A stretch of DNA of 64,000 nucleotides from positions 315,138 to 379,137 of the forward strand of contig CAJNDS010000247.1 in the NCBI GenBank assembly GCA_905221605.1. Reading direction: 5' to 3'. Below the pieces are notes generated by a model that was not told where the DNA came from, ran no database searches, and saw only the letters and a program-made list of their open reading frames with translations. Both the position numbers and the translations under genes were made by a program. The stretch is from Symbiodinium natans. Lineage: Eukaryota; Sar; Dinophyceae; Suessiales; Symbiodiniaceae. Below are positions 29,526 to 58,327 of the stretch, piece by piece (the first letter of the stretch is position 1; every line of letters starts with the position of its first letter).

Positions 29526-31498
29526 ATGTATGTATGTATGTATGGCGTGACTGCACCCTGCCACAAGTGTGGGTAACAGCCAGTCAAGGCGTCTAGAAGT
29601 CCCTCACCCTGCCCGCTGCTCTAGCGACCTGGGCGACAGCATCGTGCCAGGTGGCAACAAGCAAGGCTTGGCGGGTCACCGCAGTTTCTGCCCAGGAGGC
29701 AGCTTGAGCCGCAGCCATCTTGGCTGCAGCGAAAACATGGGTAAAAGGCGCAGTGGCTTGACCAGCTGCGCTGTCAGCAGTCTCATTGAGAGCGCGCAGT
29801 TTTGCGGTAGGCACTGGAGCAAGTGGCGACTCCCATTCGGGATGGCGGCCATGTGCAGGAACCCAGTACACAGCGGAGCCTGCAGGAAGCAGGCGGTGAA
29901 CAAGCGCCCAGTAGGCTCGAAACTCGCCGTTTATGGCAAGAGCAGATCGGAACCCGGTAACCAAGGCTTTGTTGTCTGTGAAAACACACACTGGCGCACC
30001 CAGCTGGGCAGCTGCTGTGGCTAACACGAGGAGAGCATAGCGCTCTGCTGCAGCGGAGGACCTATCTAACCCAGGAACCACCCCACCAAACCCTACACCA
30101 GGTGCACAAGCAATGCCCCAGCCTGCGTGCTGGAACCACAAGCGCTGCCATCGGTGGCAACCAGCAGTGCAGAGTCAATCGTCTCGGCGTCCGAGAGTGC
30201 AAGCAACAAGTCCTCAGGGACATCCGGGAGCTGCCACTCAGGGGCACTCAGCCCGGAAAGCAGGGGAACCAAGAAACGGTGCTCTGCAGAGGAGCGATGA
30301 GCCAGAGGGGAAGGCATAGCCGGGCAGTCGAAGGTGACATGCGTGCGCGTGGGGAGCGGGTCACCGCACACGCAAGGCGTGAAGGGAATGCGCATGCGTT
30401 CCAAGGTGCGAGTATCATGAGCGGCAGCGTGCAAGACACGGCGCATCGCACCACCAGTGGCATGGTGCGGCGCTTGGGCACGGTGGTAACGCAAAGCAAA
30501 ATGCGAGGTGGCCTGCAACGGGCCACCTGATTTAGGGTCGGCCGCCCACAGCTCACGAAGCCAGGAATCTTCCGCTAGAAGCCTAGCAACCCCAACCGAA
30601 AGAAACCCAGGCCTAAACTGACCAAAAGGCGTGCACCACACACCATCCGGCCGGATGGTCCAAGCAAAAGTGGACAAGGCAGCAGCCAAAGCAGGGCACG
30701 CGCGAGAGCGAGCCGGAGGCGGTTGCGCGCCACCGCTGCGCCGCAACTCATGGCGGACGGCAGCGAAAGCAAGAGCAAACTTGGGATGCAGGCGCGGCCT
30801 TGCCCACACCGCCCAAAGCAAAAAGCGAGACCGGGCAGAGACAACACGGCCAACAGCAGTCTCCACAGCCCTAGCCCACCCTTGAGCAGTAAGGTGAGGT
30901 ACGCTAGTCCAGGGGCCAAGCCAAGAAACCAAACTTATCACCAAGGCCATCAGCAGGCGCCTGCGTTGATGCAAGTGGCGAGCCGCAATGGCAATGCGGC
31001 GAGCACGGTTTGTGATGACCGGGTTGAGACGGGCAGAGTCAACAGCACCAGTGTGGGCGCAAAGGCGGTAGTGAATGCCCAGAAGCTTAAAGCCAGAAAC
31101 GACAGGGCCACACAGGGCCGGCCGGGCAGCAAGCACACGGCGAGCGGGAGCACGGGTGGCCCAACAAGCGAGCTTGTCGGGGTGAACTTGCAGAGCCAAA
31201 GCTTGGTCCACAGTGGCAGCAGTTTGCAAGGCAGTACAAAGATGATCGGGCGCACCCCGGCCGGTAGACCAAAGGGCACGGTCGTCAAGAAAGACGGACA
31301 TGCTGACAGTGGGAGAGGTAGCACGGATGCTCCGAACCCAAAGCAACATTAAGCCGTTTAACAGCCCAACACTAGCAGGGCAGCCTTGGAGCAATCCCCG
31401 TGTGGGGGCAACGCAAGAGCTGGCAAAGTGGCCGCGGACAGCCACCCAACGCTGTTGGCCTTCATAGAAGGCGCGCAGAAGAGAGACAAGAAACCAAC
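29526..31498 (-). mobile_element. 5'-truncated LINE inserted in a host exon
   Basis: A 1973-bp non-LTR retrotransposon copy lies on the minus strand. It is bounded by a perfect 15-bp duplication and ends at its 3' side in an ATAC/ACAT tetranucleotide tail (29526-29544). Tetranucleotide tails are common for LINEs without poly(A). The 5' end is cut within the reverse transcriptase. Removing the element and one duplication copy restores the host reading frame exactly (WDSVWA joins SRLWCVFEL). This confirms both the borders and a fairly recent event. Confidence 0.93.
29593..31498 (-). pseudogene. LINE reverse transcriptase and RNase H, truncated and frameshifted
   Basis: Reverse transcriptase motifs, in order: TRGLLQGCPASVGLLNGLML (motif B) and SMSVFLDDRALW (catalytic F-x-D-D; both Asp present). 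A thumb-like region follows, then a Cys/His segment (CVCGDPLPTRTHVTFDCP) and RNase H. RNase H shows its catalytic Asp in VATDGSACG, Glu in AAAERYALL, Asp in VFTDNKALV and a later Asp in NETADSAAG, with WVPAHGRHPEWE between. The frame breaks at about 30125-30140, between the first and second RNase H motifs. The N-terminal fingers and any endonuclease are missing. This is a dead copy. The ORF upstream of 31498 is host sequence, not LINE. Confidence 0.9.
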
Positions 31499-31513
31499 AC
31501 GCCCACACAGAGT
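31499..31513. repeat. LINE target-site duplication, right copy
   Basis: Second copy of ACGCCCACACAGAGT; see 29511-29525. Confidence 0.95.
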
Positions 31514-31592
31514 CCCATAGGATCAGGAGGTGGTCAGAGTTCTTCAAACAAGCTCCAAGGCTCAAAATCCCCTTGCCTTTCATCCGCGAGTC
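31514..31592 (-). CDS. Membrane protein gene, exon part before LINE
   Basis: Reads DSRMKGKGILSLGACLKNSD and HLLILWDSVWA, and is then interrupted by the LINE. It follows directly, in phase, from the exon at 31680-31796. The LGACL-x-x-S-x-x-L-x-I-L-W pattern precedes RLWCVFE in this family. Confidence 0.75.
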
Positions 31593-31679
31593 CTTCTGGT
31601 TGATACAAATTACTTTAGACAAGATGTAAACTCCCCTAGTCTCCCCTAAACCCTTATCTCCTAAACTCATCTGCCAATC
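31593..31679 (-). other. Short intron, GA...AG, in a 10-bp direct repeat
   Basis: An 87-base intron has donor GA and acceptor AG. ACCAGAAGGA occurs at both ends (31678-31687 and 31591-31600), so the borders lie in a direct repeat. Removing it joins HQK to DSRM and gives the family's usual continuous motif. It contains TTTAGGG-like sequence. Its length is a multiple of three without stops, so it is hidden inside a long open frame. Confidence 0.7.
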
Positions 31680-31796
31680 CTTCTGGTGGACGCATGCAAC
31701 GTCCACAAACATCGAGGTTTTGGGGCGACGAAACAGCAGCACCAGCAAGAATGTGACGATACCAGCACCGGAGCACCAGGCCCCGAAGAGGTACTC
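31680..31796 (-). CDS. Membrane protein gene, 39-codon exon
   Basis: A 117-base exon of exactly 39 codons. It begins EYLFGAWCSGAGIVTFLLVL (one transmembrane helix) and ends RPKTSMFVDVACVHQK. FVD-x-A-x-x-HQ is the family motif that comes before the RLWCVFE block. Both neighbouring introns have GA...AG borders. Confidence 0.75.
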
Positions 31797-31850
31797 CTTC
31801 TGTATGGAATATGTTCAGGGTTGATGGCTTAGGGATCCGAAGAGGTACTC
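31797..31850 (-). other. Short intron, GA...AG, in a 15-bp direct repeat
   Basis: A 54-base intron with donor GA and acceptor AG. GGAGTACCTCTTCGG is repeated at 31837-31851 and 31783-31797. It contains a stop in the exon frame, which supports removal. Confidence 0.65.
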
Positions 31851-40979: not shown

Positions 40980-41074
40980 TTGTGTATATAAAATTATTAT
41001 TTTTGATAATAATATAATATAATACAATGTAATATAATGTAATATAATATAATATTATATTATATAGTATAATA
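40980..41074. repeat. TATAA-rich microsatellite left of LTR element 1
   Basis: An AATATAAT-type repeat directly abuts the LTR. The same type of repeat continues on the far side (46722-46855). The element probably landed inside one A+T-rich tract within an intron. Confidence 0.9.
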
Positions 41075-41299
41075 GTTGAAAGACTCAAAACTCTGATGCC
41101 TGAGCTAAGGGAACAAGGCAACAAGAGGGAGAACCACAAAGGGTTGGGGATCAACACAGCCCTCGACCCTACGTACAACCCGCTCTCAGAGCGGCCCTTT
41201 TTCATCTTGAGCCAAAGGTCAGAAGGTAAGCCATCCTGATCTGCATAACATGACTATACATACATCACTTTACAGGAAGGAAGCTCGTGATTCTTCAAC
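41075..41299 (-). repeat. 3' LTR of element 1
   Basis: 225 bases. In element orientation it starts GTTGAAGAATC and ends GTCTTTCAAC, giving short inverted ends GTTGAA/TTCAAC. It contains TTTGGCTCAAGATG (reverse complement of 41203-41216) and a GCTCT/AGAGC hairpin. Confidence 0.93.
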
Positions 41300-41309
41300 T
41301 CCCCCCTTC
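41300..41309 (-). promoter_or_regulatory. Polypurine tract of element 1
   Basis: The minus strand reads GAAGGGGGGA immediately before the 3' LTR. This is the expected primer site for plus-strand synthesis. Confidence 0.85.
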
Positions 41310-41511
41310 ATGTTTGCAGATTCTCAAGTCCTAGAGCTCATTTGAAGCTCGATTCTGGACTTCAGGAAGCAACAGCTACGAGCTCAACTCTGCAGCCAAA
41401 CCTACTGTCGATTGAAGTACAGGCTTAGCCATGTACAAATTGAATCCGGTATCTCAGGTGATCAGGCTGAAACGTAGACTCAATAAACCTTTAAGGTAAT
41501 TCTACCTGCGA

Positions 41512-41935
41512 TCTATACAAAACTACTCTCAACCGGTGCAGGACTGTGCTCAGGCGGAGTCAGAGCGGCGCTTGGGAGCAGCCGTACACTGACACAACGC
41601 AGTGCAAGGCTGAGGGCAGGCAAGGAGTGCAGAACGAGATCCTCAAGAACTCATTCAGATGACACAGGGATGATGGCTCATATCCAAGTGTCTGCAAAAG
41701 CACGATGATGGATACTGTACAAGACTACTCCCAATCAGAAGCACAGCTGTGCTCATGCAGAGTCAGAGTGGCGCTAGGCAGCAGCCAAACACCGACATCA
41801 CACAGTGCGAGATTGAGGATAGGCAGTGGTTTAGGAACGAGTTCTTCAAGAGCTCATTCGGATGACACAAGGATGAAGAGAGCGGCCGCTGGGCATCCGA
41901 GTGTCTGCAAGTTGCACAGTGATGGAAGTATCGCT
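41512..41935. repeat. ~200-bp tandem duplication inside element 1
   Basis: Two diverged copies with a period of about 202 bases share ACTACTC, CAGAGTGGCGCT-like and ACTCATTCAGATGACACA sequence. They lie in the non-coding 3' part of the element, where integrase and reverse transcriptase would be in a complete Copia. Confidence 0.7.
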
Positions 41936-42224
41936 CAGCTGAACAACCATCGCAACATTATCACCAGAGGCAATTGTAACAAAGCTTTAGGTGACGGCGA
42001 ACACACTTAGCTGGGAACATCTGGCAGATGTTTAGTAGAAATGCGCAGCAACTTTAGTGCATGAGCCCATTTCCGGATTGAAAGGGCCTTCGTCAAAGAA
42101 TTACCTTTCTCAGCTTAGCTGAATATCCTTTCGGATAATGGCGACACAAGCTTCATTATTTGCATGACACAAAAGCTTGATGCCAAGAATCACGGTTTGC
42201 CAAACTTCAAGTAAAGGCAACGCG

Positions 42225-45200
42225 TCATTGAACAGGGCACTGCTCGAACACAACATACTCTCTTCCGGGAGCGTTGGAGTCGCTGAGTGACTTGAACACA
42301 TGAATGTGATCAGCTGCGATGGCTTCTCCAAATTCCGAGGCTTCAAGCAACGCGGGCTCAGAGTCCTCATCACGAGGCTTGCGACACACTCTTCTGGACA
42401 AGAGCTTGGATTGATTGCACACATCACAGACCGGGTTCTTTGGGAAGTGGAAGAAGCGATGCTTCACACTTACAGCTTCATCTCTCAGTTTGCGAACTCG
42501 ATCACTGACATGTGCATCATCCACAACGGGGAATCCAGGTGGACTCAAATCTAGAGGCTTGTCCCCTTCAGGAAGCGCAGACGCAGCAGGACCATCAGGG
42601 CTTGCTTCGATAAGATGTTCTTTGGGTAACCCCCCTGACGAAGAGGAAGGTATCTCGGACGAATCAACTTCTGCGGGAATGACATCAACCAGCGGAAGAT
42701 TGTCCAGTAGAAACCCAACTCCTATGAGAGCATCCAAAACATCATGCTCGAGAGAAGCAGGATCTTTTGCCGCACACAAGACCATCACAAGTCGATCACC
42801 AGTCCAAGGCTTCGTGGCACGAAGTCGATCTTTGGCGGAAAACCGGATGACCCCTTTCTTGGACTTCAGTAGACCGACCACACCACCTCGACAGAAGCAA
42901 CCTACTGCAAAGGACGAGTCATCGCTCGGCTCAATCCCTCGGGATGCGGAACCACGTTTCATAAGTCCAAAGATCTTACGAACTTGATTGGGCTGAATAT
43001 CACCACGCTTTGTTAGGAGGTCTTTGGCATACTCTTCAGCTGGATCATGGGCAACGGGACGCGAAGGCTCTTGGCATTCCTCACCCGACTCGTCAAGAAA
43101 ATCAGCTGATGCAGCAAGACCATGGACAAACTGACATTTGCTGGTGAAGATCGGCACACGCTCATCTGTGCGCTTGGCATAAAGCTTGGCTTCTTCGGCG
43201 CAGTCGACCCGAAGCTTAGACAAGTCATGCGCGAAGAATGGAAGGGAACCAGGTAACCATATGAAGGCCTTCCCAGATTCAACATCCAAGCCAGTGCTTC
43301 GAACAACTGGGCAGTTGTCCAACATGTAGTGAATGGCGAGAGGCATATTGTCGGACGCAAATCCCAAGCTCTGCGAACCGGGCTGAGGTCCACCGCCTGC
43401 GTGGAACGTAACAAGGCTCGCTGAGCGCGCAAGAAACGACCTGTATGACTCCGACGGAATTCCCCGGTCTGCCAACGCCCGTGCCGATCCAAGATGCCGA
43501 CCAGCAGCTGTATCCGCAGCCCACCCAACGCTGAAGGCGTTGCTTCCAGGGATGTTGCACACGCTTGAGGCGGCAATCATTGCCACGACTGCCTTCGCAA
43601 CGGCTCCTGTGGATTTGGGTTTGGGAGCGGCGGCCTTAGGCTTAGACTTAGGGTCAACCTTAGGGGTCTTATCAGGGTCATGACTGTACTTGCAGTCCTC
43701 TCCGTGCATGCAACCAGATGCCATCCTGAAGAAAATGCAAGGCGTCTTAGCCTTTTCTGCATCTGACATGCTTTTTGCTTTTGGCTTTGCTCTCGCCTCA
43801 GGCTCAGGGGTTGGTGCTGGGGTTGTAGACACTGGAGCCTCTGGCGGAGTCTTGGGCACTGGAGGACTTCGCGGTGGCTCTTCGGTCTCAGCAGGTACCC
43901 CCCTGGCCTTTGCCTGCGGAGCTGCAATCTGCAGGGACTTGATTACCGACTGAGCATTGGTGTCTTCTCGTTCTTGAACGATGACGTCTTGTATCTTGTT
44001 CCATAGGTAACTCCACTCACGACGACGGGATTCTGGCGCAGATTCTCTGATGTCATCAATGACACGTTCTAGCTTCCTAATGTGCTTCACACGGTGGAAG
44101 AGCCATTCGCCAGTGAGGCGATCATCCGGCCTCTGTCCTATTGGGATTGAATACAGAACAGTCCGAACGCGCTGCACAAAATCCCGGAGATCTCGAATGG
44201 AGTTTCCTCCAATTTCGACCTGGAACAACGTTGAAGCAGTCAGCACAGTGCCTCGAACGCGGTCAATGCTGAAATGACGAGCAAGAAGAGCAAGCATGTA
44301 TCGACCTTTCGGCTGGGACCCTGTCTGGCCACACAACTCAACGTAGGCGATAACTTCTTGCGCCAACTCAGTCACTTGCTTCAACACACGCATGGAAGTC
44401 ATCTCTCCAGCAATCCAAGCATCAAGGCGAGGAAGAAGACCTGATTCAGTAAGCTCTTCTTTTTCAGCTGTGAAAGACCGAGACAACCATGCAACAACCA
44501 AACCTTCGCCTGACATGTCAAGCTTGGCAATCTGGACCAACAACGAGTTTTTCCAGGCTCGGAAACCAGCAGCGTCGGAAGGAACCGGCTCAAGCTTGAG
44601 ATGTAACAAAGCTCGGCTGTCAACAATGTGCTTCTCTTGCCTTTCAGGCTCTTCGATCTCATGAACAGGAGATGCATCATTGCATCCTGGATCCGTGCCA
44701 TTTCTTTGGGCAAGCAGTTGCTGTACGACATCAATCAACTGATCAACACGAGGATCGGTAACGGTCGCAGGAGGGACGGTCGCAGGAGGGCAAGGGGCTG
44801 ACTCATTGACAACTTGCGGCAATGAAGGTGCACCACTACTATCCTCATTAGAACCGTTATGTACCCAACTAAACCCACCAGAGCATGCACTTGACGCAAG
44901 TACCGGCGGCTTATCTGGCTGGTGAGGAGCAGACGTTGGAGGCGAAGACCCAGGACTCGTGGCGCTTGCAGCAGCCTGGCGAAGTCTCTGAATCTCGCGG
45001 TCTTTGACTTGCAACTCGACACGTAGCTGGGTGTTTTGGGAGTTCAGCAAGTTGTTGTCACCCCGGCAGCTGGTTAGGGCGGCTTCAAGCTCTTGGTACC
45101 CTGCACGAGCGACCTGAAGTTCTGCTTCGGCCTTGCTTAGCTCGGCCTTAGCTACAGAGAGCTGTTCTTCCAAGATTCGACCCTGTTGAAGGATCTCATC

Positions 45201-45644
45201 ATAGCGATGTTCGTACTGTTGCAACTGCTCACGCATTTGCTCAACGGTGGATTCAACCAAACCTCTAGCCTCATTCTCAACACGCTCTAGCCTTGTGGCA
45301 TGCAACTGTTCAGCATGATCAGCAACATGTTGCGCTGCTTGCGCTGCGGCTAAACGCTGTGCATCCAAAACCTCTTGCGGAGAGGCTCCAACATTCAGGA
45401 TGTTCTGTGTGTATGAGGCTTGAGCGGTTAGATTAGGGTAAGGGCTTGAGTGCTCATGAGTTTTGCGAGGTCTAGACAAGGCTTGTCTAGTCAGAGGAGG
45501 GGACCTTTCACGGACCTCAACTGCTGAACTACTAGCAACCGAACCACTATCCGAACCAACACCACCTGGCAATGCCGTGGCTGAAGCACTTGACAAATCA
45601 AGCACCGAGCTGGCTTGATTGCTAGGGTCAGAAGGAGAAGACAT
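42225..45644 (-). CDS. Gag-protease-partial integrase polyprotein (element 1)
   Basis: 1139 codons from ATG 45644. Residues ~95-225 form a long coiled coil. About 345-575 is a helical capsid-like Gag region (FRAWKNSLLVQIAKLDMSGE to IQDVIVQERE). A CCCH finger, C-x8-C-x5-C-x3-H, has C636, C645, C651 and H655, in place of the usual CCHC knuckle. A Copia-type protease is suggested by ADTAAGRHL with D711. Near the end H1062, H1066, C1073 and C1076 (HFPKNPVCDVCNQSK) resemble the pre-integrase zinc motif, and D1112 (IAADHIHVF) the first catalytic Asp of integrase. The frame then stops 27 residues on. The rest of integrase, reverse transcriptase and RNase H are absent. It would form particles and process them but could not copy RNA. 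Confidence 0.85.
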   Translation of the reverse strand: MSSPSDPSNQASSVLDLSSASATALPGGVGSDSGSVASSSAVEVRERSPPLTRQALSRPRKTHEHSSPYPNLTAQASYTQNILNVGASPQEVLDAQRLAAAQAAQHVADHAEQLHATRLERVENEARGLVESTVEQMREQLQQYEHRYDEILQQGRILEEQLSVAKAELSKAEAELQVARAGYQELEAALTSCRGDNNLLNSQNTQLRVELQVKDREIQRLRQAAASATSPGSSPPTSAPHQPDKPPVLASSACSGGFSWVHNGSNEDSSGAPSLPQVVNESAPCPPATVPPATVTDPRVDQLIDVVQQLLAQRNGTDPGCNDASPVHEIEEPERQEKHIVDSRALLHLKLEPVPSDAAGFRAWKNSLLVQIAKLDMSGEGLVVAWLSRSFTAEKEELTESGLLPRLDAWIAGEMTSMRVLKQVTELAQEVIAYVELCGQTGSQPKGRYMLALLARHFSIDRVRGTVLTASTLFQVEIGGNSIRDLRDFVQRVRTVLYSIPIGQRPDDRLTGEWLFHRVKHIRKLERVIDDIRESAPESRRREWSYLWNKIQDVIVQEREDTNAQSVIKSLQIAAPQAKARGVPAETEEPPRSPPVPKTPPEAPVSTTPAPTPEPEARAKPKAKSMSDAEKAKTPCIFFRMASGCMHGEDCKYSHDPDKTPKVDPKSKPKAAAPKPKSTGAVAKAVVAMIAASSVCNIPGSNAFSVGWAADTAAGRHLGSARALADRGIPSESYRSFLARSASLVTFHAGGGPQPGSQSLGFASDNMPLAIHYMLDNCPVVRSTGLDVESGKAFIWLPGSLPFFAHDLSKLRVDCAEEAKLYAKRTDERVPIFTSKCQFVHGLAASADFLDESGEECQEPSRPVAHDPAEEYAKDLLTKRGDIQPNQVRKIFGLMKRGSASRGIEPSDDSSFAVGCFCRGGVVGLLKSKKGVIRFSAKDRLRATKPWTGDRLVMVLCAAKDPASLEHDVLDALIGVGFLLDNLPLVDVIPAEVDSSEIPSSSSGGLPKEHLIEASPDGPAASALPEGDKPLDLSPPGFPVVDDAHVSDRVRKLRDEAVSVKHRFFHFPKNPVCDVCNQSKLLSRRVCRKPRDEDSEPALLEASEFGEAIAADHIHVFKSLSDSNAPGREYVVFEQCPVQ

Positions 45645-45790
45645 TGCTGTGGGAGGTGGAAGCGGTTAGCAGCAGCTCACCGCACCCTTTCTTTTGGCGG
45701 AAGAGGCGAGGCTCACGGCGTTCACTGGTGCAACAGTGGAAGGATGTGGCGAAAATTCGCCGAACTATCCTTCAAGGACAGGCACTCCGT

Positions 45791-46435
45791 TCACTCCTCG
45801 GAATTCGGAACAGAGTTGATACACCAGTTGCAAAGCGACTCTTCTGCTTCAATCAGACCAGAAAAACTGGGCACCGTAGATCGAGGATAAACTCGCGTTC
45901 CGCGCTTAGCCAAAGAAATGTGGAACGGAGTGATGAATGATGCTCCGGCACACTCGTCCACAACTTCTGCACTGTCGTCAACAATGGCAATGGGACAACG
46001 AGCAATATCAAAGACCTTCTCCAGCAGCGCCCGCTTTCCTGATTCACCCGTGGGCTTGCGGGTGATAAAAAGTAGCGAGAGGACTGAAACTCCTGCTTCA
46101 CGGATGAGCCGATCAGTGCTGTTGCAACTCGTGCCGAGAACTTGAGCTACTGTGTCAGAATGACGGCAATAAGAAAGCACCACCACCAATATCTGCCTGC
46201 TCTCCGTAATCTGACTCAACCTCTGCAAAAAGCGAATGTTGCGGTCCGGATACTCTGGGCAATCGTCGCGCCAATTTGTGCTCTGACGAATATCACGGTC
46301 AAGGACTCCGTGAAAATCAAAAGCAAGGACTGCACGCGCCTGAGCCACCTCGCAGGAGCGCTTGCACCTTCACTCGAGACTGGAGCCGCTCCGGATGCCT
46401 CGGGGCTCAAAAGCACCTTCTTGCTCACTGTCCAT
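45791..46435 (-). CDS. HAD-superfamily-like ORF ahead of Gag (element 1)
   Basis: This ORF lies between the primer site and Gag. From ATG 46435 the frame reads MDSEQEGAFEPRGIRSGSSL and meets one in-frame TGA (46370-46372). It then continues to 45791 as AQARAVLAFDFHGVLDRDIR, QILVVVLSYCRHSD, KRALLEKVF and IAIVDDSAEVVDEC. These fit HAD motif I (nucleophile Asp in AFDFHGVLD, but His replaces the usual second Asp), motif II (Ser), a Lys, and motif IV (Asp-Asp). HAD proteins are mostly phosphatases. The His change may alter catalysis. The next start inside the open part would be a GTG (46346-46348), so the TGA is probably a lesion or is read through. The reading frame differs from that of Gag. Confidence 0.65.
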
Positions 46436-46481
46436 CCATTCTCAGGCAGCTACACTTAGGGTCTTAGCTATGAAAGCAATA

Positions 46482-46496
46482 CGGACCTGATAACCA
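46482..46496 (-). promoter_or_regulatory. Primer-binding site of element 1
   Basis: TGGTTATCAGGTCCG follows the 5' LTR directly. Its complement contains CTGATAA, the form of a tRNA anticodon loop (anticodon GAU). That suggests half-tRNA priming as in Copia, though with a different tRNA than in element 2. Confidence 0.6.
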
Positions 46497-46721
46497 GTTG
46501 AAAGACTCAAAACTCTGATGCCTGAGCTAAGGGAACAAGGCAACAAGAGGGAGAACCACAAAGGGTTGGGGATCAACACAGCCCTCGACCCTACGTACAA
46601 CCCGCTCTCAGAGCGGCCCTTTTTCATCTTGAGCCAAAGGTCAGAAGGTAAGCCATCCTGATCTGCATAACATGACTATACATACATCACTTTACAGGAA
46701 GGAAGCTCGTGATTCTTCAAC
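46497..46721 (-). repeat. 5' LTR of element 1
   Basis: 225 bases, apparently identical to 41075-41299. The SL-like motif lies at 46625-46638, about 83 bases from the LTR's 5' end, and is followed by an ATG that opens a 61-codon frame (MKKGRSESGLYVGS). Confidence 0.93.
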
Positions 46722-46856
46722 TATAATGCAATATAATACAATACTATATAATATTATATAATATTATATAATATTATATAATATTATATAATATTATATA
46801 ATATAATATAATATAATATAATATAATATAATATTTTATATTATAATATAATATGA
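46722..46856. repeat. ATATT microsatellite right of LTR element 1
   Basis: TATAATATTA-type repeats, continuing the tract interrupted by the element. Confidence 0.9.
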
Positions 46857-49911: not shown

Positions 49912-49933
49912 AAACCCTGAACCCTAAACCCTA
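49912..49933. repeat. CCCTAAA patch and left target duplication of element 2
   Basis: A CCCTGAACCCTAAACCCTA patch. The last five bases (CCCTA, 49929-49933) are repeated right after the element at 58316-58320. Confidence 0.85.
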
Positions 49934-50220
49934 TACGGGGGCAACCGAAAGGGAACAGGGAAAGAAACCAACCCTCAGCAGTCGCCTATATGGATTTCCC
50001 AGATCGAACCAGAAACAAGAACACCCACCCCTAAGGGGACAGGATAAGGGAGAAGGGACGGGACTACTCCAACCCGTTAAACCCAACCCCAGGCGTACGT
50101 ACTTTTTCAACAAAAGCTGACGGCTCTTGGCCATCTTGAGCCAAATAAGATTTCCGGGTTCATTGACCCTTCCAACCCTCAACACTAACTCCTTTCTACA
50201 ATACCAATTGCAGCTCCGCA
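49934..50220 (-). repeat. 3' LTR of element 2
   Basis: 287 bases. In element orientation it starts TGCGGAGCTGC and ends GCCCCCGTA (TG...TA). It contains TTTGGCTCAAGATG (reverse complement of 50132-50145) followed by a 67-codon frame, MAKSRQLLLKKYVRLGLG. Confidence 0.94.
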
Positions 50221-50230
50221 CTCCCCCTGT
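50221..50230 (-). promoter_or_regulatory. Polypurine tract of element 2
   Basis: The minus strand reads ACAGGGGGAG directly before the 3' LTR. Confidence 0.85.
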
Positions 50231-50594
50231 CCTAGGATTTCCTAGGACACCTTGGAGGTGCAGATATTTTGGCCAAAAACTGCTATTAAGGCAGCAGCCA
50301 GCTGCTTGAAATGCACAATATGGTTTAACGTCATCCAGGACGAAATTATAGCACATTGGCTAACCCACTAACCACAGAGAATCTCTTTTCACCATGATCC
50401 TCTTATCATTGAAGACTCCTTGGCCTTCTTCACCACAAACCGTGGTCTTTGCTACGCGAAAAGCTACTGACTTCTACTATCAGGGATTTCCATACCCTTA
50501 ATAGTACCCCCCCACCACATTGTCAGCACATTGGCTGTTCCAGCGCACTTGTCTCCAGAAAGAGAAAAACCATCCCTTCATCCATACCATCCAA

Positions 50595-53500
50595 TCACTT
50601 CTTTTTCCGATTGTTGGCAATTTTGAGGTGAAGTTGCAGCAGAATATACTCCAGGTCCGAAACTGTAAGAACAGGATCCTGTACGCACCTTTGAATTGAG
50701 GATACCAATCCTTCTCTCTTTGCGTCCTCAATCGCTTGGCAAGATTGACCTAGCTCTGCATTCACAGTGGTAGACACTGGTGCATCCGCATCAGATGGAC
50801 GATCCTTTTCCTCAGGACCTTGCACCATTACCACCTCTTCCTTTTTGGGACTCTGACTTTTCTCCTTCTTCTTTGTCTTTCCACCGACATTTGACTTTGT
50901 GCGCGTTTTCGAGGCTTTTTCCACTGCAGAGACCACCACATTGGATGATGATCCACCCTTCTCAATGATCGTCGGCATCTTCTTCGGCTTTGGAACCATG
51001 AGAGTGTAAGGATCTTCGATAGCTGCAGCTTTCCTCTTCTTTTTTACCTTTTTCTTCTCCTCCTCAACGGCAACCTCCGTCTCCGAAGTCTCAACCACTT
51101 CTTTTTCGGCAGGAATATCCTTGCTGGACTCCCTTTCTAGGGACCTCTTTTTGCCTCTTTTGGAATCTTTCTCTTCTCCCAAATTGGCTCGCTCGTACCA
51201 TATCCTCAGGTCATTGACCCATTCTTCCACCTCCGCGAGCGAAACCTCATACGACTTCACTACTTCGAGAAGTTCCAGCACGGTCAACATACCAGTGGTC
51301 CACGAAACCCATTCTTGATCCATTTGGTCAGTATCTCCAGTGAACTTCAGGAGTTTGAACAATGGGTCCGCCTCTGCTCGAGCCAAATCTGGCTTGCCAT
51401 TGGACAGAAATGAAATCGCCTCCATCAACAGTTCCGTCATTTTGGTATCATCGTCATAAACCATAAAATCCTCCTCACCATCATCGAACTGTTCAGGAGA
51501 GATCTCCTTTTCACCACCATTTGCACCAGAACTTCTCCTTGGACCATCCCTTGGGGGCGTCCTTGGAGACCTTGGCCTCTGTTCATCCAGCGGAACACCA
51601 TGCTCGAAGACACACCTGTCACCATAACGACACTTCCCAGACCGAGCAAACTGGATGCACCTCACACCAGTTGCATCATGCGAGAACCCACAATCCTTTC
51701 CAGCGAAACAGTCTCTCCCTGCCACATAGTATTTGCACCAATACGAATGTAGCACCACATCATCTTCTGAATGGATGAATTTGCAGTCTTCACCAAATTT
51801 GCAGCGATCTTTCCCCTTGCCGAACCAATAGCAGAAGCCTTTCTTCCTCTTCTCCAAGCGCTCTGCCTCGTACCGGTCCATAGGGCGATTCTGCTCTACA
51901 TGAACATTGCCATGTACCTGGGAACTGCTCCCTTCACCCGACGTGCTATCAGTATTTGATGCTTGGAGTACAGCTGGAAAACCTGGCCTTGGTCCTACCA
52001 CCTTCATGATTGGTTTTCCGCCAGCTCCTGAGCCATGCTGAGACGATCCAAAAACATTGAACATCTTCGTGAAGGCCTTTCTAGTGCCAATCTTCTGCAC
52101 CCTTTTGATTGGACATTTCATTGCTCCAACCTTGCATCCAGATGCGTTCAAACGACACAACCTCCTATACCCAGCTCTATATCCCTTCTTCCAAAGAGCC
52201 ATAAGAATTTTAGAGGCAGTAACATTCTCCACCTCTACCTTTTCCAATGGTCCCTCACTTCCCGGAACAAACCCATCCATATCTGAAGACCTTTCCATCT
52301 TTTTTGACACCACTTCGTCGAGGTAGTCTTCCGAGATCCAGGGTAAGTTCCTCTTAGAGGAAGGATTGTCATCATTGCTTGGTCCTTCACCAGGATACCC
52401 TTTGGTGCTGTCAAAGATCTTACCAGTAGTGCGGTCCTGCATAGAGAAATTAGAAGCCACGCGGGAGTACACTGACCACAAGAAAATCCTTGTGTCCGCC
52501 AGTCTTGATGACCCACTGGATGTCTCCTCTTCCGGAGAAACTTCTGGCGCTTTGCCATCCCCTCCAGTGTCACCACTTATCTCACCTCCAGCATCTTCAA
52601 TGGGAATAAGGGATTCATTGTTCCCTTGATCAAGTACCGCATCCTCTGGTCCAAGAACTTCCAGCACCGCTGTCGAAGGATCCACCTCTTCATCAGCATC
52701 GTCGTCCATCCTTTTCCAGAGAGCCTCCAATTGATCCGCACAAGTCGCCGCCTGAAGGAACTCCATCAACCGGGCCCTCCCGCGCTGCCAGAGAAATTCC
52801 GAAACCATCACCGACCCCTGGGCTCCGAGGTTCAGGAACGGGTGAACCAATTTGGCTACCCTCGCCATAAGTTCAATGTGAACTTCCATGCCTGGACTGC
52901 GACTCCAATCATAGGCAATTGCCTCCATAGCAGTTCCAAACTTGTCAGTGTTTTTGAATTCCCCTTCCAGACCAGGAGACAACAATGCACCCATCACCGA
53001 AAGAGGATAATTTCCCACCGCCGGCAAGCACGGGTTGTCATGGAACGAATGACGCAGGTCACAATAATGTCCTTGATCTCTCCTTTGAAAAAGGAGTGCT
53101 CCAGTCCCTAGCTGGGCATTCATTTCATCCACTTGAACCATTTCAGCACATATCCTCTGTGCCATGGACGCCATTGCTGGCCAGACGGAACGATCGGTCA
53201 GACCGCGACGCATAACCCAATCAGTTGTTGGCGACTGAATCAGCGTTCTTGGATCATACACCATAACCACCATCGCACCGTCACCCATTGACTGATCAGC
53301 ATCGTCCTCCAGTGCCAGGTTCTCATCCTGTTCGCTTGCGCCCTCGGATGACATGCTAATAACCAAATTTCGATCCATCTTATTGGACCCCTTTTGGCAG
53401 TCTCTTTGCCCCACAGGCAACTTGCCAACAGCAACCTTCCAATAAATCCGAGTCAGGAGACCTTTAACCAGCAATTGCTGAAGGTCATTCTTCACCGGAC

Positions 53501-54773
53501 AAACATCCAATATCTTCGCACCATCACCACGGAGTTCATTGCTCCCACCTTCTCCTTCTTTTTGGTCAGTCTCCTCGCCAGAAATTTGCACTGCTCCTTC
53601 CAGCGCCGTCTCCTGTCCAGCCACTTCTTGCCCAGGAAGAACTTGAGCGCTTTCAGATACATTCACCTGTCCAGCAACACCTTGCCCAGGTAAAACCTCC
53701 TCCGTGGAGCCCACCGCCAGCGAACCAACCATAACTGAACCATCCCTTGCTCTTTTTTGAGACTGTTCAGTTCGACGAGAAGGTTGTGGTAGCGAAAAAA
53801 CTTGTGAAGTCACTTCTTGGCGGGTCTCCCCCCGCGACGCTTTGTCGCGCCCTTCGCCAAGGTGAACCGATTTTTTCGGCCCGTCATTGGGGCCTGAAGA
53901 ACCACCCTGCGGAACATTGCCACGAATCGCAGTTCTCTGTGAATCCCTTTCTTGCAAGAAGATTTCCTTCAGGCGTTGCGCGGCATTGGTCTCCTCCTCG
54001 CTTGAATCGCTTGAGGAAGCGGCATACGAGACCAAAGCCTCCGCCTGTTCATCATCATCCACCACATCTGCCCACGCTCTGCTGAACCGATACGACAACC
54101 CACCACGAGGCTTCAGTTCCAGTGGCTTCGGCTTTTCCACCACTTCCGCCGGTTGCACTCGTCGTTGTGACCGAGAGCGTGGCACCTGTCGCACCTGTTT
54201 TTTGTCCAGCAAGGGCCTTCCCCTTCTCACAGGGTTTGATCTTGACCGATACTTTTTTGTTGGCGGGTTCACCGGCGGCATTCCAACTCCCACCAACTGC
54301 AGCTTCTGTACGCACAGCGGAGACCTCTGCGCAAGCGTCCAAGCATCACGGTACCTGACCTTATCAAAAAGCTCCCGATAGGAGCCTCTCGGCATGGTTT
54401 TTGCACCGGAGTCTTCAGCTTCACGCACCTGAGTGAGGGTTCGCACCGCTGCTCTTCCAGTTCCTTTGCTCCCAGAAGATCGTTGTACCCGTACAGATGC
54501 ATCGGAAGGAACTGCTTTTTCCGGTCCTCCCGGACGATATCGGACACCACCAACCAATTGCAGAATTTTGCATGCGGTCACTTTGTTGATCCCTTTGTCA
54601 ACCAAATCTTCCACAAAGATGAACTCTTGCAAGTCCGACACATTGGTCACACCAAGTGTAATCATCACCTCACTTACATGAGGGGTATACACCCACAGGT
54701 GTTCGTTGCGAGCCATCCAATTTTCAATTGGCTCCTCCGGATTTTGAAGCCGAGTACCAGTGGATTCAGCCAC
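50595..54773 (-). CDS. Element 2 ORF2: SAM-like start, three CCCH fingers
   Basis: 1392 codons. Residues ~15-75 (VMITLGVTNVSDLQEF, EDLVDKGINKVTACKIL) resemble a SAM-type helical domain. About 85-480 is a basic, then acidic, low-complexity linker with repeats (EEVLPGQGVAGQVNVSE, QVLPGQEVAGQ). About 500-700 is a more globular unknown region (WPAMASMAQRICAEMVQVDE). A basic Cys-containing patch lies at 850-905. Three CCCH fingers follow: C981/C991/C997/H1001, C1013/C1022/C1028/H1032 and C1039/C1048/C1054/H1058. The C-terminus has a helical region (~1108-1195) and Lys-rich tails. CCCH fingers usually bind RNA. The listed start is a GTG. The frame is open about 36 bases further upstream, and the first ATG is at 54718. 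It lies in the -1 frame relative to ORF1, so expression by frameshift or internal initiation is possible. No enzyme motifs seen. Confidence 0.8.
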   Translation of the reverse strand: MAESTGTRLQNPEEPIENWMARNEHLWVYTPHVSEVMITLGVTNVSDLQEFIFVEDLVDKGINKVTACKILQLVGGVRYRPGGPEKAVPSDASVRVQRSSGSKGTGRAAVRTLTQVREAEDSGAKTMPRGSYRELFDKVRYRDAWTLAQRSPLCVQKLQLVGVGMPPVNPPTKKYRSRSNPVRRGRPLLDKKQVRQVPRSRSQRRVQPAEVVEKPKPLELKPRGGLSYRFSRAWADVVDDDEQAEALVSYAASSSDSSEEETNAAQRLKEIFLQERDSQRTAIRGNVPQGGSSGPNDGPKKSVHLGEGRDKASRGETRQEVTSQVFSLPQPSRRTEQSQKRARDGSVMVGSLAVGSTEEVLPGQGVAGQVNVSESAQVLPGQEVAGQETALEGAVQISGEETDQKEGEGGSNELRGDGAKILDVCPVKNDLQQLLVKGLLTRIYWKVAVGKLPVGQRDCQKGSNKMDRNLVISMSSEGASEQDENLALEDDADQSMGDGAMVVMVYDPRTLIQSPTTDWVMRRGLTDRSVWPAMASMAQRICAEMVQVDEMNAQLGTGALLFQRRDQGHYCDLRHSFHDNPCLPAVGNYPLSVMGALLSPGLEGEFKNTDKFGTAMEAIAYDWSRSPGMEVHIELMARVAKLVHPFLNLGAQGSVMVSEFLWQRGRARLMEFLQAATCADQLEALWKRMDDDADEEVDPSTAVLEVLGPEDAVLDQGNNESLIPIEDAGGEISGDTGGDGKAPEVSPEEETSSGSSRLADTRIFLWSVYSRVASNFSMQDRTTGKIFDSTKGYPGEGPSNDDNPSSKRNLPWISEDYLDEVVSKKMERSSDMDGFVPGSEGPLEKVEVENVTASKILMALWKKGYRAGYRRLCRLNASGCKVGAMKCPIKRVQKIGTRKAFTKMFNVFGSSQHGSGAGGKPIMKVVGPRPGFPAVLQASNTDSTSGEGSSSQVHGNVHVEQNRPMDRYEAERLEKRKKGFCYWFGKGKDRCKFGEDCKFIHSEDDVVLHSYWCKYYVAGRDCFAGKDCGFSHDATGVRCIQFARSGKCRYGDRCVFEHGVPLDEQRPRSPRTPPRDGPRRSSGANGGEKEISPEQFDDGEEDFMVYDDDTKMTELLMEAISFLSNGKPDLARAEADPLFKLLKFTGDTDQMDQEWVSWTTGMLTVLELLEVVKSYEVSLAEVEEWVNDLRIWYERANLGEEKDSKRGKKRSLERESSKDIPAEKEVVETSETEVAVEEEKKKVKKKRKAAAIEDPYTLMVPKPKKMPTIIEKGGSSSNVVVSAVEKASKTRTKSNVGGKTKKKEKSQSPKKEEVVMVQGPEEKDRPSDADAPVSTTVNAELGQSCQAIEDAKREGLVSSIQRCVQDPVLTVSDLEYILLQLHLKIANNRKKK

Positions 54774-57700
54774 CGAATTCTTTTGTTCATCAGCTTCTGC
54801 TTCATCCAGAATACCTTTTCACCTTCTTTTTGTGACACATTGGTCATTTGCAGCGCTTTTGGTGCCGAGGATGAGGAAGATTCAGCTCCCCCACTCGCAG
54901 GTGGCTGAAAAGTGCTTCTGTCCGAAATCTCCCATCCTCTCTCCTTTTCAAACCGGACCTGATTGGCCACCTGTACCAAGTGTTTCAGGAGCGTCAGCCG
55001 CTCATCTGACATCTCGTCGTGGGAGTACTTGCAGAAATTTGACCCTTTCCGGCAACGTCCTCTGAGGTAATAATCGAAACAGCAATGGTGGAACCCTGCG
55101 TCCCTTAGTGCCTTCCTGGAAGCATTGTCCCAAGATTTGCCGGGCTCCCAAGTCCCTTCCAATGCTATGTCATCGTTGTGAAGATACCTGCATGTAGTCC
55201 CATATTTACAACCACCTTGATTGTAATACAGACACAGACGACCTTTTGGCTCACCCGACGTAGGTTCACCCTTTGATGCACCTTTGCCAAAATTGTACTT
55301 GGCCCGGAAGGCTAAATCCTCCCGCTCCTGCTGTGCCTCATCCACTGTACCTTCCTCTGTGGGAGGGTCACCGATGTTCCCATCCTCATCTTCAGCTTCT
55401 TGGCTGTTCTTTGGATCAGTTGACCCCCCTTCTGGCCAACCTTCACCATAACGACGATGCTCATAGGGACAACCATCACCATTGCGACACCTTCCCTTAT
55501 TGAAGAACTTGCACAGTTTGCTGTATCCAGGTGACACAGTCTGTGGAGTCATGTGAGCCTTTTTGTACTGGTCAGGGTCCATGTAGGCTTCCATTGGCTT
55601 GTTCTCCCTTTTGCTCATGGATTGCACTGCACCATCAAGCTCCTGCAAAAATAGCTTGGTGTCCAACCAAAGCGCGTTCCAAAACTCATCTTCCCCTTGA
55701 TTCAGCACCGTTGCCACCGCTTCACCCACAACTGGTCGAGTAAATCTCCTTTTTCTGCATGCCAGTTCGAAAAGCGCGTTGTGGTACTGTTTTCGGGAAA
55801 AAGTGGTTAACTTTCCCAAGCCTGTGCTTTCTGTACCATCAGGCTTCCAACCATCATTTTGCAAGACGCCATACGCGCGCCGAGCTTCCGCATTGAGGAA
55901 TGCATGATCTGCAACACACTCCTGTAGCTCTTCCATTGGGCGACCCAACAGCATCCCAGTAATTTTTCCAACATAGGCCTCATCTTCGTTTCCATTCTCC
56001 AGAAGAGCTTTGTAGATCTTTTCTCCATAAAGTTGCCTTTCCTCTCGTTCTTCTGCGGGTAACTCCTGTACCGCAAGCCCTTCATCGGATTGCTCTTCCT
56101 CCTGTTTCCAGTCCCATTGACCGTTGGAATCTTGGTACCATTGACCAGCATACCATGAATCCGTCCACCACGTACTCCAGTCGCTGGGTTTCCATTTACG
56201 CAGCGTCGAGGAAGAGTCCTCCACGTCCTCTTCCCAAACCAGAAAGGTGTCCAAGATTATGGTACCATCATCTTCCACTCGTTTCACTGTTCCATTGACA
56301 GTATCACCAAATCTGAACTGACATGTATTGTTCCCTTCTGCAGGAACCAATACATTCAAATCACCATGGTCCAAAAAGGCTCCATACCCATTGATGCAGC
56401 GCACTAGACCCATGATCTCATCTCCCTCTTGATAGCAATGTTTCCCAGGTGATTCCAAGGCTCCCGCTCGGGGCACTTTCTTTGCATGCTCTTCAGAAAC
56501 CACCTCTGTATCATCGGCTCCTGACGCATCCTTTGTCTTCACCTTTGGGTCACACTGCTCGTCCTGCTCCACGAGTCCCACAGGCTCATCTCCTTTGTGC
56601 TCCTGGATTTCAGGACCTCCCTTTTTTTCCGCCAAAGGCTTTGCCTCATCTGCTGCAGTTCGCCCGGTGTCGACTTCCGGCGAACTTCCAGACGGCAACA
56701 CTTCTCCCTTCATGGGAGTGGACCCATCATTGGAGTCCTTTGTCACACCTTCTGCAGCAGGCACATTTTCTTCCACTGCAGGGCGATTGAGTTGATCATC
56801 CACGGCAGGCACACTTTCTTCCACCGCAGGCTCCTTTGGTTCCATGGTTTCCAAAGGAGAATTGCCACCATCATTGACCACAGCTGCCTCATCGGCTCCG
56901 GTGTAGCCCTTGTCATTTCGTTCCTCGCGGCTAACTTCAGGTTGCACCAGTGCGTCCACCTGTGAACCTCCATCATCAGCTGCTGCGGAGACCTGCGCCC
57001 CATTGTTGCAGTCGCCCGTGGAACGTGACACCATATGCACCTCAACCCGTGCTTCCTTCGCACTCCAGGTACTATCTGGCGCATTGACCCGCGCATCATT
57101 GGCGCTCCAGGCCTCATCTTTCAGATCTTCCGTGTCTCCAGCTATTCCAGAAGCTTCTTTTTCCCCTTGAATGGCAGGATTCTTGGCACCAAACGAAGAG
57201 ACTTCCTCAGTCGCAACACACAACTTTTTCCCTCCGTCTTCCGAATCTCCAGGACCACCTTCCTGAACGACAGGTACCACATCCACCACTCGCTCTTCTG
57301 CAGCACACGCTTGGATCAGATGCTCATCTTTCCGAAAACCATCCCTTTCAGAGACCTGACGCATCTCATCCTCTTCTTCTGACAACTGTTGCAACCTTTC
57401 AGCCTCCATCTGTAGGATCTCCTCCTCCCCCATGGCGTATTCAGCAGCTGGTGCAGCTTCAAAGCTGTCCGCACCCTTCTGTTCGTAACCGCTTCCACCA
57501 CCTTGGGAACTCGAAGATGGATCCCCTTTAATCTTGTTCAGAGGCCTCCTGGCCGCTTGCAGCACTTCTCCAATCAGATCGGTCTGAGACCCTTGGTCTA
57601 CCATTCGACCCGAAGTCGAAGTCGACGGCTGATACCCGTGTTTTTGCAACACTCGTAAAACAGTCACCTCCATTTCACGATCTATACCACCAGTCGCGTC

Positions 57701-57961
57701 CCAGTTCCTTTTTTCACCAGGCTTTGGCGATACAGAGACAGCACGTCCTTCAGCTTCAGCATTGCTAACCATATCCACATTGGGATTCATACCCACATTG
57801 GGGCTTTCCGCAACCAAGGCTTCTTCCAGATGTTCTTCAGCGCCGGGAATCACCTCTTCCAGCACCGCTCTTTCACCCAGAGACTCAGCTGCACCATTTC
57901 CAGCTCCACCATTCTGTCCACCATCCGAGGAAGGTTGGAGCCATCGCTTAGGAGAAGGCAT
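54674..57961 (-). CDS. Element 2 ORF1: S1-like, PABC/MLLE-like, three CCCH
   Basis: 1095 codons from ATG 57961, about 67 bases after the 5' LTR. Residues 1-500 are acidic and disordered, with internal repeats (PAVEESVPAVDDQLNRPAVE). About 512-573 reads as an S1 RNA-binding fold (GDEIMGLVRCINGYGAFLDH, FGDTVNGTVKRVEDDGTIIL). A Trp-rich linker follows. About 645-702 matches the PABC/MLLE domain of poly(A)-binding proteins (GEKIYKALLEN, then GKITGMLLGRPMEELQECVA). CCCH fingers: C817/C825/C831/H835, C910/C918/C924/H928 and C961/C970/C977/H981. MLLE domains bind PAM2 peptides of translation and mRNA-decay factors, so this protein could link element RNA to the host poly(A) machinery. That role is inference. 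Confidence 0.82.
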   Translation of the reverse strand: MPSPKRWLQPSSDGGQNGGAGNGAAESLGERAVLEEVIPGAEEHLEEALVAESPNVGMNPNVDMVSNAEAEGRAVSVSPKPGEKRNWDATGGIDREMEVTVLRVLQKHGYQPSTSTSGRMVDQGSQTDLIGEVLQAARRPLNKIKGDPSSSSQGGGSGYEQKGADSFEAAPAAEYAMGEEEILQMEAERLQQLSEEEDEMRQVSERDGFRKDEHLIQACAAEERVVDVVPVVQEGGPGDSEDGGKKLCVATEEVSSFGAKNPAIQGEKEASGIAGDTEDLKDEAWSANDARVNAPDSTWSAKEARVEVHMVSRSTGDCNNGAQVSAAADDGGSQVDALVQPEVSREERNDKGYTGADEAAVVNDGGNSPLETMEPKEPAVEESVPAVDDQLNRPAVEENVPAAEGVTKDSNDGSTPMKGEVLPSGSSPEVDTGRTAADEAKPLAEKKGGPEIQEHKGDEPVGLVEQDEQCDPKVKTKDASGADDTEVVSEEHAKKVPRAGALESPGKHCYQEGDEIMGLVRCINGYGAFLDHGDLNVLVPAEGNNTCQFRFGDTVNGTVKRVEDDGTIILDTFLVWEEDVEDSSSTLRKWKPSDWSTWWTDSWYAGQWYQDSNGQWDWKQEEEQSDEGLAVQELPAEEREERQLYGEKIYKALLENGNEDEAYVGKITGMLLGRPMEELQECVADHAFLNAEARRAYGVLQNDGWKPDGTESTGLGKLTTFSRKQYHNALFELACRKRRFTRPVVGEAVATVLNQGEDEFWNALWLDTKLFLQELDGAVQSMSKRENKPMEAYMDPDQYKKAHMTPQTVSPGYSKLCKFFNKGRCRNGDGCPYEHRRYGEGWPEGGSTDPKNSQEAEDEDGNIGDPPTEEGTVDEAQQEREDLAFRAKYNFGKGASKGEPTSGEPKGRLCLYYNQGGCKYGTTCRYLHNDDIALEGTWEPGKSWDNASRKALRDAGFHHCCFDYYLRGRCRKGSNFCKYSHDEMSDERLTLLKHLVQVANQVRFEKERGWEISDRSTFQPPASGGAESSSSSAPKALQMTNVSQKEGEKVFWMKQKLMNKRIRWLNPLVLGFKIRRSQLKIGWLATNTCGCIPLM

Positions 57962-58016
57962 TGCTTCTTGATCCCAAAGATCTTAAGACAACACTCAACC
58001 GCAGGGAACCTAATTT

Positions 58017-58028
58017 GGGCTCATAACC
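58017..58028 (-). promoter_or_regulatory. Primer-binding site of element 2 (half-tRNA type)
   Basis: GGTTATGAGCCC follows the 5' LTR. Its complement, GGGCTCATAACC, contains CTCATAA, the tRNA-Met anticodon loop. Drosophila copia is known to prime from a cleaved initiator tRNA-Met at this arm, so the same mode is likely here. Confidence 0.7.
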
Positions 58029-58315
58029 TACGGGGGCAACCGAAAGGGAACAGGGAAAGAAACCAACCCTCAGCAGTCGCCTATATGGATTTCCCAGATC
58101 GAACCAGAAACAAGAACACCCACCCCTAAGGGGACAGGATAAGGGAGAAGGGACGGGACTACTCCAACCCGTTAAACCCAACCCCAGGCGTACGTACTTT
58201 TTCAACAAAAGCTGACGGCTCTTGGCCATCTTGAGCCAAATAAGATTTCCGGGTTCATTGACCCTTCCAACCCTCAACACTAACTCCTTTCTACAATACC
58301 AATTGCAGCTCCGCA
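58029..58315 (-). repeat. 5' LTR of element 2
   Basis: 287 bases, apparently identical to 49934-50220. The SL-like motif lies at 58227-58240, about 75 bases from the LTR's 5' end. Confidence 0.94.
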
Positions 58316-58327
58316 CCCTAAACCCTT
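58316..58327. repeat. Right target duplication of element 2 in CCCTAAA
   Basis: CCCTA (58316-58320) duplicates 49929-49933 and continues as CCCTAAACCC. The insertion target was a telomere-type repeat. Confidence 0.85.

What the first reader, a model, noticed from the sequence alone, without database searches (positions are those of the whole stretch)
49934..58315. A non-autonomous LTR element that encodes two giant RNA-binding-type proteins
Seen: apparently identical 287-bp LTRs, CCCTA target duplication, primer site, purine tract, and two intact overlapping ORFs (1095 and 1392 codons). Neither has a protease, integrase, reverse transcriptase or RNase H motif. Known: non-autonomous LTR elements usually have little or no coding capacity or a lone gag. 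Inference: this element may supply RNA-handling proteins (six CCCH fingers, an S1-like and an MLLE-like domain) that recruit a partner's enzymes or protect its RNA. I do not know of a described element with this layout.
Basis: partly seen in the sequence, partly recalled or inferred. Interest (0 to 1): 0.92.

Follow-up and report, generated by a model that had tools for sequence, protein, structure and literature searches.

The report
Giant-protein retroelement aimed at telomere repeats
In what is likely a dinoflagellate genome, most examined copies of a mobile DNA family sit at one exact position inside telomere-type repeats; the six full copies read carry one giant, predicted RNA-binding protein gene where copying enzymes would normally be, so they likely borrow those enzymes from other elements.

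Summary
The element is real: identical 287-bp LTRs, 5-bp target duplication, primer-site-like sequence, purine tract, and no Pfam match to RT, integrase, RNase H or protease. But the "two intact overlapping ORFs" are one giant ORF: a database relative (P0043, 2435 aa) runs through the join, and 5 of 5 other full copies have one more base there plus 465 nt that the window copy lacks. All 6 copies read have broken frames, yet dN/dS between them is 0.30-0.49 and zinc ligands are kept in 252 of 262 cells. S1 and MLLE folds and six CCCH fingers are supported.

Of 18 insertions, 15 have the duplication TAGGG/CCCTA; of a systematic sample of 20 others, 17 have that 5' flank. Another LTR family gives 0 of 9. 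The primer site plus leader has 704 exact genome places.

A short-LTR group shares LTR ends, primer site and target; the one copy read encodes a Gag-like protein unlike the giant one. No reverse transcriptase was tied to either group, so mobilisation in trans, RNA binding and integrase targeting are inferred. The papers listed in my searches describe no LTR retrotransposon of this kind.

The parts
58029..58315 (-). 5' LTR (sense is the minus strand), TGCGG...CCGTA, 287 bp
   Evidence: 100% identical to 49934-50220; ends read
49934..50220 (-). 3' LTR, 287 bp
58316..58320 (.). target-site duplication CCCTA (TAGGG on the sense strand), inside a telomere-type repeat
49929..49933 (.). target-site duplication CCCTA, other side
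58016..58028 (-). primer-binding-site-like GGTTATGAGCCCA; with four more leader bases it has 704 exact places in the genome
   Evidence: complementarity to the anticodon arm of initiator tRNA-Met is recalled, not proven
50221..50230 (-). purine tract ACAGGGGGAG before the 3' LTR
   Evidence: same in all 6 full copies
58230..58238 (-). 3' end of the dinoflagellate spliced leader (TGGCTCAAG) in the 5' LTR
   Evidence: leader sequence given in PMC7245778 (passage)
50135..50143 (-). same leader part in the 3' LTR
54674..57961 (-). first part of the giant ORF (S1, MLLE, three CCCH fingers; the WW-like stretch of relatives is missing here)
57304..57305 (-). junction where 5 of 5 other full copies carry 465 more bases
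54815..54817 (-). place where the reading frame of this copy is shifted relative to relatives
50595..54818 (-). second part of the giant ORF (weak SAM/HhH-like stretch, three CCCH fingers)

Best explanation
This is one copy of a high-copy LTR retrotransposon family, most examined copies of which sit at one fixed register inside TTTAGGG telomere-type repeats; it encodes a single giant protein with predicted RNA-binding domains in place of copying enzymes, and is likely mobilised in trans by enzymes of another element. Shown: the LTRs, 5-bp duplications, primer-site-like sequence and purine tract; the fixed target register in most copies examined; one long ORF in a relative; purifying selection between copies; identical LTR pairs in 10 of 13 insertions, so recent movement. 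Predicted: S1, MLLE and CCCH domains bind the element's own RNA and host poly(A)/translation factors. The MLLE fold in other proteins binds PAM2 peptides, so the protein would act like a poly(A)-binding-protein mimic that stabilises and gathers the element RNA. Inferred: the element RNA is trans-spliced or begins near the leader relic in the LTR; a half-tRNA-Met primes cDNA; reverse transcriptase and integrase come from elsewhere; the integrase, directly or through a telomere-repeat-binding partner, cuts TT^TAGGG so that TAGGG is duplicated. A related short-LTR group with the same ends, primer site and target encodes a Gag-like protein in the one copy read, and is the likely source of particle protein, or a sister of the helper.
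For: Identical LTRs; 6 of 6 full copies with the same primer site and purine tract; 704 exact genome places of primer site plus leader, reversed control 0; 15 of 18 insertions with TAGGG/CCCTA and 2 more in variant repeats of the same register; 17 of 20 in a systematic sample; other LTR family 0 of 9; dN/dS 0.30-0.36 in 11 pairs with dS above 0.04; zinc ligands 132 of 142 and 120 of 120 against 65% and 80% overall identity; S1 and MLLE folds, MLLE by profile; P0043 2435 aa, cluster of 288 members; 10 of 13 LTR pairs identical, two further pairs with 0 and 2 differences; copy C1446 lacks about 4.1 kb of the coding region yet has identical LTRs and the CCCTA duplication (the deletion may postdate insertion); short-LTR group with Gag-like ORF.
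Against: No reverse transcriptase or integrase sharing the LTR, primer site or target was found. In the one short-LTR copy looked at beyond Gag, the stretch 3.25-4.5 kb past the primer site has stops in all three frames. The tRNA primer is not proven: two of 94 places with the anticodon-arm pattern were scanned and gave no tRNA gene. None of the 6 copies read has an unbroken ORF, though single-base differences could also be assembly errors. One of 18 insertions (TCCTT) and two of the 20 sampled (CCGGG; LTR not recognised) do not show the target. Large parts of the protein are predicted with low confidence (mean pLDDT 38 and 50); only one fold match is below E 0.001; MLLE falls below the Pfam cut-off in P0006.
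Confidence: 0.68

Rival explanations
1. The giant protein itself is the targeting factor: it would tether the integration complex to telomere-repeat DNA or to its RNA, and the integrase is not specific.
For: Both LTR groups with this primer site share the target; the protein has many nucleic-acid-binding-type fingers.
Against: The short-LTR copy read has the same 5' flank, but its first 2.6 kb encode a Gag-like protein with no match to the giant protein; copy C1446, lacking most of the second half, sits in the target too. Both could still be served in trans.
Confidence: 0.15
2. A host gene for an RNA-binding protein was captured between the LTRs and is a passenger with no role in transposition.
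For: S1, MLLE, WW-like and CCCH domains look like host RNA-binding proteins; dinoflagellate retroelements are known to take up DNMT genes (PMC5890265, passages).
Against: 704 primer-site places, purifying selection between copies, and the hits of three protein searches are all 44-98% identical to the queries, with no separate, more distant host-type homologue (in each only the roughly 8000 candidates sharing most words were scored).
Confidence: 0.12
3. The telomere-repeat association is selection or abundance, not targeting: the genome is full of such repeats and insertions elsewhere were lost.
For: Telomere-type repeats are very common here (126 heptamers in the 64-kb window; 4546 places of one junction pattern).
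Against: One register of seven in 15 of 18 and 17 of 20 sites; young insertions; another LTR family with an identical LTR pair in the window hits other sites (9 of 9 not TAGGG); chance of 15 or more of 18 at a 0.9% background about 2e-28.
Confidence: 0.04

Closest known systems
Ty1/Copia-type LTR retrotransposons using a half-tRNA primer (Drosophila copia; PMC5371799, one passage)
   Same: 5-bp duplication, short LTRs, primer site resembling an anticodon arm (recalled) next to the 5' LTR; the related short-LTR copy has a Gag-like ORF
   Different: no pol found; one giant RNA-binding-type ORF; telomere-repeat target
Telomere-repeat-specific non-LTR retrotransposons SART1/TRAS1 (PMC7265360 and PMC2868851, abstract starts in the search listing)
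   Same: insertion within telomeric repeats
   Different: LTRs, target duplication and integrase-type insertion rather than target-primed reverse transcription (recalled); sites here include interstitial-looking repeats
Ty5 of yeast (PMC4700185, passages)
   Same: LTR element directed to telomere-related regions
   Different: Ty5 targets silent chromatin through Sir4, not a DNA sequence register
Non-autonomous LTR elements (gag-only types, LARDs; recalled)
   Same: LTRs and replication signals kept, enzymes supplied in trans
   Different: a protein of 2435 aa or more with S1, MLLE and CCCH domains, no recognised capsid

Membership tests
LTR retrotransposon | identical direct LTRs, TG start, target duplication | tested here: met
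   ends are TG...TA
LTR retrotransposon | primer site and purine tract beside the LTRs | tested here: met
   6 of 6 copies; tRNA identity itself not proven
Autonomous LTR retrotransposon | reverse transcriptase, RNase H, integrase, protease | tested here: not met
   no Pfam match at E 0.1 in the window ORFs nor at E 0.01 in P0043, P0003, P0006
Ty1/Copia superfamily | PR-IN-RT order of pol | not testable with these tools
   no pol in the element or in the parts read of one short-LTR relative
Half-tRNA-Met-primed element | primer site complementary to the host initiator tRNA anticodon arm | tested here: inconclusive
   pattern common in the genome (94 against 2 control) but no tRNA gene found in 2 of 2 loci scanned
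Telomere-repeat-targeting retroelement | fixed-register insertion in telomeric repeats | tested here: met
   15 of 18, 17 of 20 by the 5' flank, control family 0 of 9
Gag (capsid) protein | capsid fold | tested here: inconclusive
   low-confidence model of the first 880 residues of part 2, no match at E below 0.001

The most novel reading that the evidence does not exclude
The first LTR retrotransposon lineage that integrates with DNA-register precision into telomeric (TTTAGGG) repeats, run as a divided system: a Gag-coding element and a giant-protein element share ends, primer and target, and the giant protein is a retroelement-owned poly(A)-binding-protein mimic that keeps the partnership's RNA alive and near telomere-repeat chromatin.
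Probability: 0.35. Interest if true: 0.92.

Novelty: new variant of a known kind. Interest (0 to 1): 0.8.

Why it matters
Strict sequence targeting is known for non-LTR retrotransposons; [quoted passage not shown] Yeast LTR elements are directed by host proteins rather than DNA sequence (PMC4700185, passages). An LTR integration machinery that reads TTTAGGG in one register would be a new targeting mode and would help explain how a dinoflagellate genome carries so many interstitial telomere repeats and LTR elements together. A retroelement with its own giant S1/MLLE/CCCH protein would also show a parasite encoding mRNA-handling functions normally borrowed from the host.

Tried and rejected
Two-gene layout: rejected, a relative and the five other copies read show one frame across the join. 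Programmed frameshift at the join: dropped, because relatives need none.

L072/L074 copia-like element as partner: rejected; its LTR is 175 bp, unrelated, and the telomere repeat near it is not at its LTR end. Junction pattern CCCTAAACCCTATGD to find other telomere-targeted LTRs: 4546 places, but 20 plus-strand places that I chose from the first 100 listed looked by eye mostly like ordinary repeat ends. Pattern GTAGGTTATGAGCCCB: 1 place only. Element 2 of the window as partner: different primer site and targets, and its Gag shares only finger-length similarity. Viral and bacterial collections: no relative. Rfam at E 0.5: nothing in the element. Capsid fold in the second half: no significant match.
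Full report
What is there. The element lies on the minus strand of the window at 49934-58315. Two 287-bp LTRs are identical, flanked by CCCTA. Next to the 5' LTR is GGTTATGAGCCCA, which resembles the complement of an initiator-tRNA anticodon arm (recalled; Drosophila copia is primed by a half-tRNA, PMC5371799, one passage). A purine tract precedes the 3' LTR. The LTR contains TTTGGCTCAAG, the last 11 of the 22 bases of the dinoflagellate spliced leader (leader sequence in PMC7245778, passage); TGGCTCAAG occurs 7 times in the window against 1.1 expected. A longer form of this LTR word (CTTATTTGGCTCAAG) was found in 13 of 30 LTR loci; a motif TTTGGCTCAAGATGNNNAAGNGCCG has 69 genome places in two forms.

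One gene, not two. Protein searches with the two frames returned 40 and 28 relatives. P0043, 2435 aa, covers the second frame fully and residues 219-1056 of the first in one chain. Five other full copies were fetched. All five have one more base at the join and a 465-nt segment at about 57304/57305 that the window copy lacks. Each of the six copies, the window's included, has its own frame breaks, which may be decay, reverse-transcription errors or assembly errors. Some relatives start MPSPKRW and others MATNWL, with near-identical sequence later, which suggests mosaic subfamilies.

The coding sequence is under selection. Over 15 pairs of the six copies dN/dS is 0.304-0.491; in the 11 pairs with dS above 0.04 it is 0.304-0.358 and in the four closest pairs 0.36-0.49 (gapped and stop codons were left out). 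Zinc ligands are kept in 132 of 142 cells (three fingers of part 1, 15 divergent relatives; for the third finger the better-kept of two neighbouring cysteines was counted) and 120 of 120 (part 2, 11 relatives), against overall identities of 65% and 80%. Pfam gives CCCH/Torus and MLLE above cut-off in the window copy, P0043 and P0003; in P0006 MLLE falls just below. A profile search of the PDB finds PABP MLLE domains (E 2.6e-4) and weakly the PRPF40A WW domain (E 0.0045). The AlphaFold2 model of residues 460-1056 of part 1 matches an S1 domain (probability 1.00, E 5.5e-4, the only match below 0.001, poor superposition) and MLLE domains (probability 1.00, target TM 0.84-0.85, E 0.035-0.06), although its mean pLDDT is only 50. 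The model of the first 880 residues of part 2 is poor (pLDDT 38) and has no significant match. A third protein search returned 30 relatives of the same type and no separate host homologue; each of the three searches scored only the roughly 8000 candidates sharing most words.

Copies and youth. The primer site with four more leader bases has 704 exact places in the genome (361 and 343), 0 for the reversed control on either strand. An LTR search saw 1436 candidates and scored 40. Of 13 LTR pairs compared, 10 are identical and three differ at 1, 1 and 3 positions; two further pairs differ at 0 and 2 (L065, L064). Copy C1446 lacks about 4.1 kb, including almost all of the second half of the ORF, yet has identical LTRs and the CCCTA duplication; the loss may have come after insertion. 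These fit mobilisation in trans but do not prove it.

The target. For the 17 insertions behind the 30 best LTR loci plus one fetched copy, the 5-bp duplication (read on one side only for 4 in that call) is TAGGG or CCCTA in 15, TCGGG and ACCTA in two more that lie in variant repeats of the same register, and TCCTT in one that lies a few bases from such a repeat. TAGGG and CCCTA are the same physical site read in the two orientations, so one of seven registers is used. The background of the heptamer is 126 per 64 kb in the window and 546 per 60 kb in pieces of the loci about 500 bp or more from the LTR; at the latter rate 15 or more of 18 has a probability near 2e-28. To avoid choosing by LTR similarity I took every fifth of the first 100 listed of the 704 primer-site places (20 pieces; 12 re-fetched longer): the 5' flank is TAGGG or CCCTA in 17, CCCTG in one, CCGGG in one, and in one the LTR was not recognised; the 3' side was not read for these. 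As control, the other leader-bearing LTR family in the window was examined at 9 insertions (8 fetched plus the window copy): ATTAT, CCTAA, GTTTT, GTTCA, TTAAT, TTCTT, TTTCC, TTATA, TATAT; 0 of 9 in the TAGGG register, one (CCTAA) in a telomere-type repeat in another register (six called by script, three read by eye).

A related group. Ten of the 12 re-fetched copies have shorter LTRs (206-229 bp), 83-91% identical to the window LTR over the first 86-105 bp, with a terminal match of 30-36 bp in 8 of the 10, the same primer site and TAGGG/CCCTA as 5' flank. The interior of one (C1, L143) was read for 2.6 kb: an open frame of 766 codons, running to the end of the piece, with by eye a Gag-like helical stretch, a CCCH finger and a CX2CX4HX4C knuckle (Pfam matches to the fingers below cut-off, none to a capsid) and no match to seven giant-protein sequences at E 1e-5. 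A further piece of that copy, 3.25-4.5 kb from the primer site, has stops in all three frames, so this copy gives no pol there. I therefore call this group a Gag-bearing relative with shared signals, likely part of the helper system, not a proven autonomous partner. Copia-type RT is abundant in the genome (2237 candidates, 150 scored, all 150 above cut-off), but none could be tied to these LTRs. Two RT families (L068, L069) have a likely LTR start soon after the ORF with the leader part about 16 bp inside it (read by eye), so leader-bearing LTRs are not peculiar to this family.

Mechanism and limits. The best-supported reading is trans-mobilised integration at TT^TAGGG plus a giant RNA-handling protein. 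Targeting is shown as a pattern; its agent (integrase, giant protein or host telomere protein) is not. RNA binding and PABP-like action are predictions from folds.

Literature. Among the titles and abstract starts listed by searches (at most 20 per search; 296, 62, 59 and 23 papers matched in 52, 53, 94 and 35) none describes this element or an LTR retrotransposon with register-exact insertion into telomeric repeats. I read passages of PMC3229502, PMC7245778, PMC11453091, PMC12477314, PMC4700185, PMC5890265 and PMC5371799; of the others only listing lines. Most subscription papers are not held, so absence here is not proof.

Noticed in passing
window 41074-46722: A second LTR element on the minus strand: 227-bp LTRs 100% identical, duplication ATTAT, leader part in the LTR, 1146-aa ORF with a CCCH finger (Pfam below cut-off) and, by eye, protease-like and integrase-zinc-like stretches; the window frames scanned gave no RT match. 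Motif spacing of 5.2-5.4 kb recurs in other genome copies.
   Followed up: partly
L031, L041, L053 (3' of the RT ORFs): Downstream of RT ORFs a short word recurs every few tens of bases, different per family: CACTG, ACTTT or CATTG (by eye). Unexplained.
   Followed up: no
G000, e.g. C1: Interstitial telomere-type repeats are very common: 4546 places of CCCTAAACCCTATGD, 5 in the reversed control.
   Followed up: partly
window, 7 places of TGGCTCAAG: All seven matches of the spliced-leader end are on the minus strand, 7 against 1.1 expected; three (5573, 24221, 27686) lie outside the two elements.
   Followed up: no
P0003 versus P0014/P0016: Two alternative N-termini (MPSPKRW and MATNWL) followed by near-identical sequence, suggesting recombination between subfamilies.
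   Followed up: no
window 30093-31814 (-): 573-aa frame that by eye looks like a LINE-type reverse transcriptase remnant; no Pfam match at E 0.01.
   Followed up: no
L072/L074 (C138): Copia-type element with a 175-bp identical repeat at both ends and a 2723-codon open frame around the RT match.
   Followed up: partly
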